Assembly (NCBI GenBank): GCA_038503075.1
Contig: JBCAML010000007.1
Coordinates: 620,001 to 684,000, forward strand
Origin: Gyromitra esculenta
Lineage: Eukaryota; Ascomycota; Pezizomycetes; Pezizales; Discinaceae
DNA length: 64,000 nucleotides
Direction of reading: 5' to 3'
A program made the translations under genes and the position numbers. Below are positions 28,135 through 30,244 of this stretch, one piece after another (position 1 is the first letter of the stretch; each line of letters opens with the position of its first letter). The notes beneath the pieces were generated by a model. It made no database searches. It was not told where the DNA came from and worked only from the letters and a program-made list of their open reading frames with translations.

Positions 28135-30244
28135 TCAAATCCCTTCTCGATACCATCCAGCAATAAGGAAAGCCGCCTCGAGAGCTTGATTGTTATTGAG
28201 CCTAGGATCGCAATAAGTGGTATAATTTAGGGAAAGGTCATCATCAGTAAGGCCTTGAGAGCCACCAACGCATTCCGTAACAGCATCCTGAATTTGTGAG
28301 TAACTATTCGACTTTAGAGAGATAAGTAATGGATGAGCTATTTTCTTACCCCCGTTAATTCAAGATGTACACCACCAAGATGCGTTCCATGCTCTTTGTG
28401 GATACTATGAGCGGCAGAGAGCTCGTCCATAATAGAAGAGAATTGGCGGGTTTTTATTCCGGAGGTAGATGAGCGAGTGTTTCTAATACCACTTTTAGTT
28501 AGTGAAAGAGCATTAAAAAAATAACATATGTGAAAAAGGGCTCTTTACCCATGCATAGGGTCACCTGTAAGCGACAAAAACAAAAAGGTTATTTATGTGT
28601 TTATTACACTATTAGCTGATACAAACCGGTCTGCACTTCTAAAGGGGTGTCTTACACTGCCTTCGAAAGAGATTAGCCAGCGGACGTTAAACGTGATATC
28701 TAGTAGGAGAATACCAAACAACAACATGCCCAGCGCTCCGAACACCTTTAATGTGTCCCGGTAATAGCTCACGGACTCTGTCGCATCCATACCTGGTAAT
28801 CAAGGTCACTTTCCCAACCTCCTTATTCGGATTAATAATGTCGAGCAAAGTGGCTAGTTCTTCGTTTTTCATCGATGGGCCGACTTTGATCCCTATGGGA
28901 TTCTCAATGCCACGGAAGTATTCAACATGAGCGCCATCGAGCTGTCTTGTACGATCTCCAATCCAAATGAAATGTGCAGACGTATTAAACCATTTCCGTT
29001 GTCCATCAGAAGGGTTTCTGAGGGATCTTGTCAGGCATTGCTCATACTCAAGGTGAAGCCCTTCGTGTGAAGTGTACAAGTCAACGGTGTCAAGACTCCG
29101 AGCCTTATCAGCTCCAACTGTACGCATAAAGCTGATGGTCTCAGTGATTGAGTTCACGATAGCTTGGTATTCTTGTTTAGTTTGGTCATCTTGCACATGG
29201 CTTAATGTCCACTCGAATGGGCGATGGAGATCGGCAAAACCCGAGGCCAACTGCGAGCGAACATAATTTAAGGTAGCCGCGGAGTGGAAATAAGCGCTAT
29301 TATGATGAGCTGAAACGAATTCATTAATTATTGGGAGTGAGTTGTACACACCTAACGAGGCGGGCTGGGTCGGGGGTTCTATCCGCCGGATCAAATCCAT
29401 TAATATTGTCACCTCTGAAAGAAGGTATTTCTTTTCCATCAACAGTCTCTGTCATGCTAGACCTCGGCCTATTCTACCTGTTAGAGGTAAGAAAAAAGTG
29501 TAAAATAAACCATAGCAAACTTACTTGGCAAATTGGCCGGCCATTCTAGCTATACGTACTACAGGAATGCGACCTCCTGATATAATTAGAGATAAATATT
29601 GAGCGTAGAATTCAAACATGAGACAAACCCCATATCAGGACCAGGCTCATCTGTAAAAGAAGTTTGATCTTGGCATTGATAGGCTCCTAGATGACATCAA
29701 GATTGCTGAAATTGAGAGTGCATGTAGACTACTTACCTCAGAGCAGTAATCAAATAGTTCGGCGCAGTCACCTGTAGGAAAAAAAGGGTTATCAACCGGT
29801 GAGTTTATGTAGGAATAGGTTGATCTACCCCCTTGCAAAAGAAAAGCCTTGCCAAGAGCGACTTCTTTCAGAGAATTGCGAAGCTTTATAATCTAAGTAA
29901 GAGTTAGTTGGTTAGGATACAGGAATACACTAATACTTTACCTCAGTCGGGGAAACAAGAGGAGGCAAAGATTCCAGTTTTTGGAGAGCCTTCTCGACAG
30001 CTTTTTGGTCACCATAGATGACATTTTGCTTCATCGGCTTTGATTGCCAGGCTTAATAAAGAAAGCTATCATTAACAATGGTTTTGAACAAGTCGATCAT
30101 GACGATCAACTTACATGATGGGCTCCAGGCATCATTGTTCATCTGCAAGTTTTGGGTAATAGTGGTAGTGGTTTTGGCAGTTTTCAAAGCAGCAGCGCTT
30201 TTTGCGGCCTGACTGAGGGGTAGTTCAACAGGCGAGCTAGCCAT
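28135..30244 (-). CDS. Class II (plant-type) DAHP synthase, twelve exons with a 5-nt microexon
   Basis: 3-deoxy-7-phosphoheptulonate synthase: condenses phosphoenolpyruvate and erythrose-4-phosphate, the first step of the shikimate pathway; 484 aa. Minus-strand exons: 30244-30115, 30051-29942, 29892-29829, 29771-29737, 29686-29629, 29576-29525, 29468-29352, 29296-28715, 28660-28656, 28564-28549, 28482-28350 and 28287-28135. All phases are consistent. Diagnostic blocks in order: QGGDCAELF (metal-binding Cys), LLLQMSLVLIWG, RMAGQFAKPRSS, AYFHSAATLNYVR, TSHEGLHLEYE, LDGAHVEYFRGIENPIGIKV, TLITRYG, WQCDPMHGNT, HLGGVHLELTG and YCDPRLN. The WQCDPMHG block only forms if a 5-nt exon (GCAGT) is spliced between introns of 54 and 91 nt. 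Shares a 362-bp divergent promoter region with HYPK. Ascomycetes are known to use class II enzymes (N. crassa has one). Confidence 0.9.
28656..28660 (-). other. 5-nt internal microexon of DAHP synthase
   Basis: On the minus strand an AAG acceptor ends at 28661, the exon reads GCAGT, and a GTAAGA donor starts at 28655. With TG before it and GTGACCC after it, the codons become TGG CAG TGT GAC CCT. This restores Trp-Gln-Cys-Asp-Pro of the conserved active-site block and the reading phase. Without it the frame meets a stop. Confidence 0.75.

What the first reader, a model, noticed from the sequence alone, without database searches (positions are those of the whole stretch)
28656..28660. A 5-nucleotide microexon rebuilds the active-site block of DAHP synthase
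In the sequence, exon 8 ends in ...GTTTG and the conserved DPMHG block resumes at 28564 in another phase. Only a GCAGT exon, with an AAG acceptor before it and a GTAAGA donor after it, gives Trp-Gln-Cys-Asp-Pro and keeps phase. Family knowledge: class II DAHP synthases have W-x-C/S-DPMHG here. Exons this short are rare in fungi because spliceosomes have difficulty defining them; skipping it would truncate the enzyme, so it could serve as a switch.
Basis: partly seen in the sequence, partly recalled or inferred. Interest (0 to 1): 0.75.

Follow-up and report, generated by a model that had tools for sequence, protein, structure and literature searches.

The report
Five-base exon in a morel-relative enzyme
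In a cup fungus related to morels and truffles, three conserved amino acids beside the active site of an aromatic-amino-acid enzyme are spelled across an exon only five bases long, a splicing oddity that looks real but is not unprecedented, and that several public gene models of related fungi appear to get wrong.

Summary
The gene (minus strand, 30244..28135) is a 12-exon, 484-aa class II DAHP synthase of a Pezizales fungus close to Maublancomyces (Gyromitra) gigas and Morchella. Exon 8 ends at 28715, exon 9 is GCAGT (28660..28656), and exon 10 is itself only 16 nt. Shuffled gaps offer a W-Q-C solution in 0.05%. W-x-C/S-DPMHG is present in 152 of 160 listed relatives; 7 of 16 named Pezizomycetes have public models broken at this block, including M. 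gigas, Rhizina and 4 of 4 truffle-family models. This fits an old tiny exon that annotation misses. The switch idea has no positive support: all seven mis-splice isoforms computed stop and none gives an alternative enzyme. Likeliest is a constitutive exon spliced by intron definition, failing by intron retention. Tiny fungal exons are on record, including codon-sized ones in Tuber. No RNA of this species and no relative's DNA was available. New member of a known kind.

The parts
28135..30244 (-). Class II DAHP synthase gene, 12 exons, 11 introns, CDS 1455 nt, 484 aa
   Evidence: Spliced; PF01474 E 7.7e-203; all 5 PF01474 matches in the 47.1-Mb assembly lie in this gene
28715..29296 (-). Exon 8 (582 nt), ends GTT-TG, leaving two bases of the Trp codon
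28661..28714 (-). Intron 8 (54 nt), GTATTC...AAG, CTAAT branch-point-like motif starting 16 nt before its end
28656..28660 (-). Exon 9, the 5-nt microexon GCAGT: completes Trp383, gives Gln384, starts Cys385
28565..28655 (-). Intron 9 (91 nt, the longest of the 11), GTAAGA...CAG; its only YTRAY motif starts 51 nt before its end
28549..28564 (-). Exon 10, a second microexon of 16 nt: finishes Cys385, encodes Asp-Pro-Met-His389, starts Gly390
   Evidence: His389 aligns with His369 of the M. tuberculosis enzyme
28483..28548 (-). Intron 10 (66 nt), GTAAAG...TAG, CTAAC branch-point-like motif starting 20 nt before its end
28350..28482 (-). Exon 11 (133 nt), resumes with the last base of Gly390 and then Asn-Thr

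Best explanation
The 5-nt stretch is a genuine, constitutively included microexon of an otherwise intact class II DAHP synthase gene in a Pezizales fungus, followed by a second microexon of 16 nt. The two together encode W(part)-Q-C-D-P-M-H-G(part), which includes the metal-binding histidine. Most likely the short flanking introns are recognised by intron definition and removed one after the other: once intron 8 is out, GCAGT is simply the end of a long exon with a good GTAAGA donor, so no exon-definition problem arises. The usual failure would be retention of intron 9 or 8, which stops translation, rather than exon skipping. The arrangement is probably old, shared by at least Discinaceae and Rhizinaceae and perhaps Tuberaceae and Morchellaceae, and missed by gene predictors. 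Shown: the sequence, the frame, the uniqueness, the protein conservation, the pattern of broken models. Inferred: inclusion in mRNA, order of splicing, mode of failure, age.
For: One clean 12-exon model with no internal stop and a full-length match to PF01474. One of 162 two-intron joins and none of 4 single-intron joins restores W-x-C/S; shuffles give a W-Q-C solution in 0.05%. W-x-C/S-DPMHG in 152 of 160 listed relatives. Seven of 16 named Pezizomycetes models deviate at this block, against 1 of the other 144 proteins, named or not (Dipodascopsis, W-I-S-DPCHG, which looks intact); names, sequences. The M. gigas model reads W-Q-C-K-A-L..., as expected if a predictor ran through a GTAAG donor right after CAG-T; retention of intron 9 in our gene reads W-Q-C-K-T-P-L-stop. 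The Rhizina model joins a point within exon 8 to G-DPMHG, which implies an acceptor at or next to the start of the exon 10 sequence. Three Tuber models go from V-[I/V]-C straight to N-T, which fits the same exon 8 and exon 11 borders as here with 21 nt left out. The Morchella importuna model has the same length (484 aa) and W-Q-C. Three unnamed JGI proteins whose longest contigs are 1488 to 1810 nt (P0003, P0004, P0155) contain the block; the contigs leave little room for introns and so may be transcripts, an inference from length.
Against: No transcript of this species and no DNA of any relative was seen. Intron 8 has a weak-looking donor (GTATTC) and an AAG acceptor (also used by intron 1), with a CAG acceptor 4 nt downstream that would leave a 1-nt exon and a frameshift. 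Intron 9 has no YTRAY motif within 50 nt of its acceptor. The Tuber models fit one merged 21-nt exon as well as 5 + 16. The resemblance of intron 9 to the M. gigas read-through is weak: P 0.006 over the first 10 codons, 0.24 over all 23, and other offsets score higher. The Trichophaea and Choiromyces models are broken in ways I could not decode, and the Trichophaea model also lacks another segment.
Confidence: 0.84

Rival explanations
1. The microexon is a regulated switch: its inclusion is varied to turn DAHP synthase, and so entry into the shikimate pathway, on or off through truncation and nonsense-mediated decay.
For: All seven mis-splice isoforms computed stop, and two class I DAHP synthase matches elsewhere in the genome could serve as backup. 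A switch-like microexon of 20 nt, likewise not a codon multiple, is reported in Trichoderma Xlr2 (passages of PMC11121469).
Against: Stops soon after a mis-splice are what unregulated errors would also give. In three Tuber models the double skip is in frame, so truncation would not be conserved. No alternative product results. No expression data at all.
Confidence: 0.1
2. The block is spliced some other way, for example from an exon-8 donor further upstream directly to exon 10, giving an enzyme that lacks 9 to 25 residues.
For: Four such single-intron joins keep the frame, and the public Rhizina model does something of this kind.
Against: All four remove at least the stretch A-G-H-V-V-V-W-x-C; W-x-C/S is present in 152 of 160 listed relatives, and the donor at 28715 fits the exon 8 border implied by three Tuber models.
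Confidence: 0.03
3. The gene is decaying or the assembly has an error here, and GCAGT is a chance match.
For: No transcript was available to exclude it.
Against: The other nine introns and eleven exons give an intact full-length protein; chance W-Q-C solutions are 0.05%; models of several related species fail at the same place.
Confidence: 0.03

Closest known systems
Codon-sized microexons of NACHT-ankyrin (nank) genes in Tuber melanosporum (Iotti et al. 2012, seen only as cited in one passage of PMC4986451)
   Same: Pezizales; exons of a few bases that are spliced in.
   Different: Described there as multiple, codon-sized and alternatively spliced, a diversification mechanism; this one is 5 nt, single and probably constitutive, in a metabolic enzyme.
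Trichoderma Xlr2 20-nt switch-like microexon (PMC11121469, passages)
   Same: Filamentous ascomycete; a tiny exon, not a codon multiple, that is needed for a conserved protein block and was missed by the gene model.
   Different: 20 nt; glucose-dependent inclusion seen in RNA-seq by its authors, who call functional microexons previously undescribed in filamentous fungi. Here 5 nt and no evidence of regulation.
Microexons of Phanerochaete chrysosporium P450 genes, shortest exon 6 bp (PMC1184071, passages)
   Same: Fungal, tiny exons; the paper also notes frequent small introns.
   Different: Basidiomycete P450 gene models; another gene family.
cgs2 microexon of Schizosaccharomyces pombe (Romfo et al. 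2000; reference seen, paper not held; content recalled)
   Same: Recalled: intron definition, failure by intron retention rather than skipping, the mechanism proposed here.
   Different: Experimentally tested; different gene and lineage.
Ultra-short plant microexons, 1-15 nt (MEPDB, PMC12409088, two passages)
   Same: The same size class, mostly unannotated.
   Different: Plants; 2398 small internal microexons in 10 species catalogued with a pipeline.

Membership tests
Class II DAHP synthase (PF01474) | Full-length match to the family profile | tested here: met
   E 7.7e-203, residues 40-477 to profile 1-438 of 438; 7 distinct PDB sequences matched, 5uxm and 2ypo aligned over most of their length
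Class II DAHP synthase (PF01474) | Metal ligands Cys, His, Glu, Asp (M. tuberculosis C87, H369, E411, D441; the list is recalled) | tested here: met
   Query C104, H389, E431, D461; C104, E431 and D461 are invariant in the 27 aligned sequences, my pick of 26 of 120 relatives plus the query; H389 aligns with H369 of 2ypo. H389 is encoded only if exon 10 is included.
Constitutive microexon | Internal exon of at most 51 nt between GT-AG introns | tested here: met
   5 nt, introns GTATTC..AAG and GTAAGA..CAG; size limit from PMC12409088
Constitutive microexon | Present in mature mRNA | not testable with these tools
   No RNA data of this species; protein conservation only
Constitutive microexon | Conserved in orthologous genes | tested here: inconclusive
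   Indirect, from disrupted public models in 7 of 16 named Pezizomycetes; no relative's DNA was readable
Switch-like microexon | Usually a multiple of three in length, so that both isoforms are read (PMC11121469) | tested here: not met
   5 nt. The feature is only 'usual': the Trichoderma switch itself is 20 nt, so this does not exclude a switch
Switch-like microexon | Skipping yields another functional product | tested here: not met
   All three skip isoforms stop within two codons of the exon 8 end
Switch-like microexon | Inclusion changes with condition | not testable with these tools
   Needs RNA-seq

The most novel reading that the evidence does not exclude
A pair of adjacent microexons (5 and 16 nt) carrying the metal-binding block of DAHP synthase has been kept for the age of a whole Pezizales lineage (morels, false morels, truffles, Rhizina) because the slow, order-dependent removal of introns 8 and 9 sets how much active enzyme enters the shikimate pathway.
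Probability: 0.08. Interest if true: 0.7.

Novelty: new member of a known kind. Interest (0 to 1): 0.4.

Why it matters
It is a well-constrained case of a very short exon in a fungal metabolic gene, placed where an error removes the active site, and it offers an easy test of how an intron-definition spliceosome handles a 5-nt exon. It also suggests that public DAHP synthase models of three Tuber species, Choiromyces, M. gigas, Rhizina and Trichophaea lack or garble conserved residues, and that checking models for an invariant block is a cheap way to find microexons that annotation misses.

Tried and rejected
Single-intron joins: 4 keep the frame, none gives W-x-C/S. Other middle exons with exon 8 ending at 28715 and GT donors: 4 joins in all, the other 3 give unrelated residues. 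The CAG acceptor 4 nt downstream: frameshift and stop. Homology of intron 9 to the M. gigas read-through: only the first 10 codons exceed shuffles (P 0.006; 0.24 over 23 codons; offsets 1, 14, 16 and 19 score higher than the true one), so weak. The Fisher value (6 of 7 against 2 of 153, P 9e-9) rests on a lineage grouping chosen afterwards from recalled phylogeny, four of the seven being from one family, and counts Dipodascopsis as broken; I do not lean on it. The 160 proteins are the top 120 of three lists capped out of about 8000 hits each, not a random sample. The class of the 16 'named Pezizomycetes' was looked up for three and is recalled for the rest; unnamed proteins may include more. 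Other defects of the broken models: M. gigas and Trichophaea lack the N-terminus, Trichophaea also an inner segment, so those models are poor in general. After checking the draft against the calls I dropped the argument that a non-codon-multiple length speaks against a switch, raised that rival from 0.08 to 0.10 and the novel case from 0.07 to 0.08, and lowered the best explanation from 0.86 to 0.84.

Papers: nine searches of open-licence PMC papers only. Just one, (DAHP synthase, class II, fungi, exon), asked for this enzyme and returned 0 papers; of the others I saw titles and starts of abstracts (one search listed 25 of 61). So absence from print is not shown beyond that. No structure was predicted.

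Full report
What is there. The minus strand at 30244..28135 carries a 12-exon gene whose joined exons give 1455 nt and 484 aa without an internal stop. The protein matches PF01474, class II DAHP synthase, over the whole profile (E 7.7e-203) and aligns with solved bacterial enzymes. All 5 PF01474 matches in the 47.1-Mb, 23-contig assembly fall in this gene. Two class I DAHP synthase matches lie on other contigs; the second spans six in-frame stops, so introns or decay, not examined. The best relatives are Maublancomyces gigas (87% identity over 89% of the query) and Morchella importuna (83% over 100%), so the fungus belongs to Pezizales, most likely near Discinaceae (family of M. gigas); the species was not identified.

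The microexon. Exon 8 ends ...GTT TG at 28715. Exon 9 is GCAGT at 28660..28656. Exon 10, GTGACCCTATGCATGG at 28564..28549, is also a microexon (16 nt). The reading is TG|G CAG T|GT GAC CCT ATG CAT GG|A = W Q C D P M H G. Introns 8, 9 and 10 are 54, 91 and 66 nt, the other eight 49 to 63 nt, all GT-AG; intron 1 also ends in AAG. His389, in exon 10, aligns with His369 of the M. tuberculosis enzyme, a metal ligand by recall.

Is it more than chance? I enumerated GT or GC donors from 28800 to 28601 and AG acceptors from 28760 to the GACCC at 28562, with introns of at least 35 nt and middle exons of at most 60 nt. Single-intron joins that stay open number 4, none with W-x-C/S; two-intron joins number 162, of which exactly one gives V-[VI]-W-x-[CS] before DPMHG. 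In 20,000 dinucleotide-preserving shuffles of the gap, with introns of at least 40 nt, 2.6% offer some 5-nt W-x-C/S exon, 0.05% W-Q-C, and 0.01% W-Q-C with a GT[AG][AT]G donor.

Relatives. Of the first 120 proteins, 112 have W-Q-[CS]-DPMHG; of all 160 gathered from three capped lists, 152 have W-x-[CS]-DPMHG. The 8 that do not are M. gigas, Rhizina undulata, Choiromyces venosus, Tuber melanosporum, T. magnatum, T. aestivum, Trichophaea hybrida and Dipodascopsis tothii. Dipodascopsis has an intact-looking W-I-S-DPCHG. The other seven are among 16 named Pezizomycetes in the lists (class looked up for three, recalled for the rest), and each deviates at this block. M. gigas reads W-Q-C-K-A-L-F..., as expected if a predictor found the start of the microexon but ran through a GTAAG donor; retention of intron 9 in our gene reads W-Q-C-K-T-P-L-stop. 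Rhizina jumps from within exon 8 to G-DPMHG, which implies an acceptor at or next to the start of the exon 10 sequence. The three Tuber models go from H-T-V-[IV]-C to N-T, which fits the same outer borders with 21 nt (5 + 16) left out; they cannot tell 5 + 16 from one 21-nt exon. The Morchella importuna model carries W-Q-C. Trichophaea and Choiromyces could not be decoded, and M. gigas and Trichophaea models have other gaps too. All this is inference from protein models; no relative's DNA could be read here.

How it most likely works. Intron definition is thought to be predominant in organisms with short introns such as yeasts, and its efficiency depends on intron rather than exon length (passages of PMC8624252). 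I infer that introns 8 and 9 are removed one after the other and that GCAGT is constitutive. By recall, the cgs2 microexon of fission yeast (Romfo et al. 2000, not readable here) fails by retention of an intron and not by skipping; the same is predicted here. Weak points are the GTATTC donor, the AAG acceptor with CAG 4 nt further on, and the lack of a YTRAY motif within 50 nt of the intron 9 acceptor.

The switch idea. Skipping exon 9 gives ...VVVW-stop, skipping exon 10 ...VVVWQ-stop, skipping both ...VVV-stop; retaining intron 8, 9 or 10 and using the CAG acceptor all end in stops too. Unregulated errors would also give that, and in the Tuber models the double skip is open. Nothing here shows regulation, and nothing here excludes it: the Trichoderma Xlr2 microexon, a reported switch, is 20 nt and also not a codon multiple.

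What is known. Fungal microexons are on record: codon-sized, alternatively spliced ones in T. melanosporum NACHT-ankyrin genes (one passage of PMC4986451), a 6-bp shortest exon in Phanerochaete P450 genes (passages of PMC1184071), and the 20-nt one in Trichoderma, whose authors write in 2024 that functional microexons had not been described in filamentous fungi before (passages of PMC11121469). In plants 1-15-nt microexons are catalogued (two passages of PMC12409088). The present case is a further, unusually short and well-constrained member. One search that named this enzyme returned no paper.

Verdict. Observation confirmed; interpretation right on anatomy and on the consequence of skipping, unsupported on the switch. 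Interest moderate.

Noticed in passing
window 28549-28564 (-): Exon 10 is itself a 16-nt microexon, and exons 9 and 10 together make 21 nt, so two adjacent microexons carry the active-site block.
   Followed up: yes
P0002, P0007, P0011, P0017, P0021, P0030, P0067 (public proteins): Public DAHP synthase models of M. gigas, Rhizina, Choiromyces, three Tuber species and Trichophaea deviate at the W-x-C-DPMHG block, probably annotation errors.
   Followed up: partly
window 58703-63733 (+) and 49116-50066 (-): Reverse-transcriptase reading frames; the first is a long retrotransposon-type frame with integrase and chromodomain, open over 1676 aa.
   Followed up: no
window 33558-34304 (-): Open frame with MutS domains I and II: a mismatch-repair gene exon.
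   Followed up: no
window 39840-40721 (+); 26561-27490 (+); 17817-19385 (+): Open frames matching the raffinose synthase, berberine-bridge enzyme and CENP-U families.
   Followed up: no
L006, L007 (own genome, contigs C3 and C6): Two class I DAHP synthase matches, the second with six stops inside the match (introns or decay), so the class II gene is not the only DAHP synthase locus.
   Followed up: no
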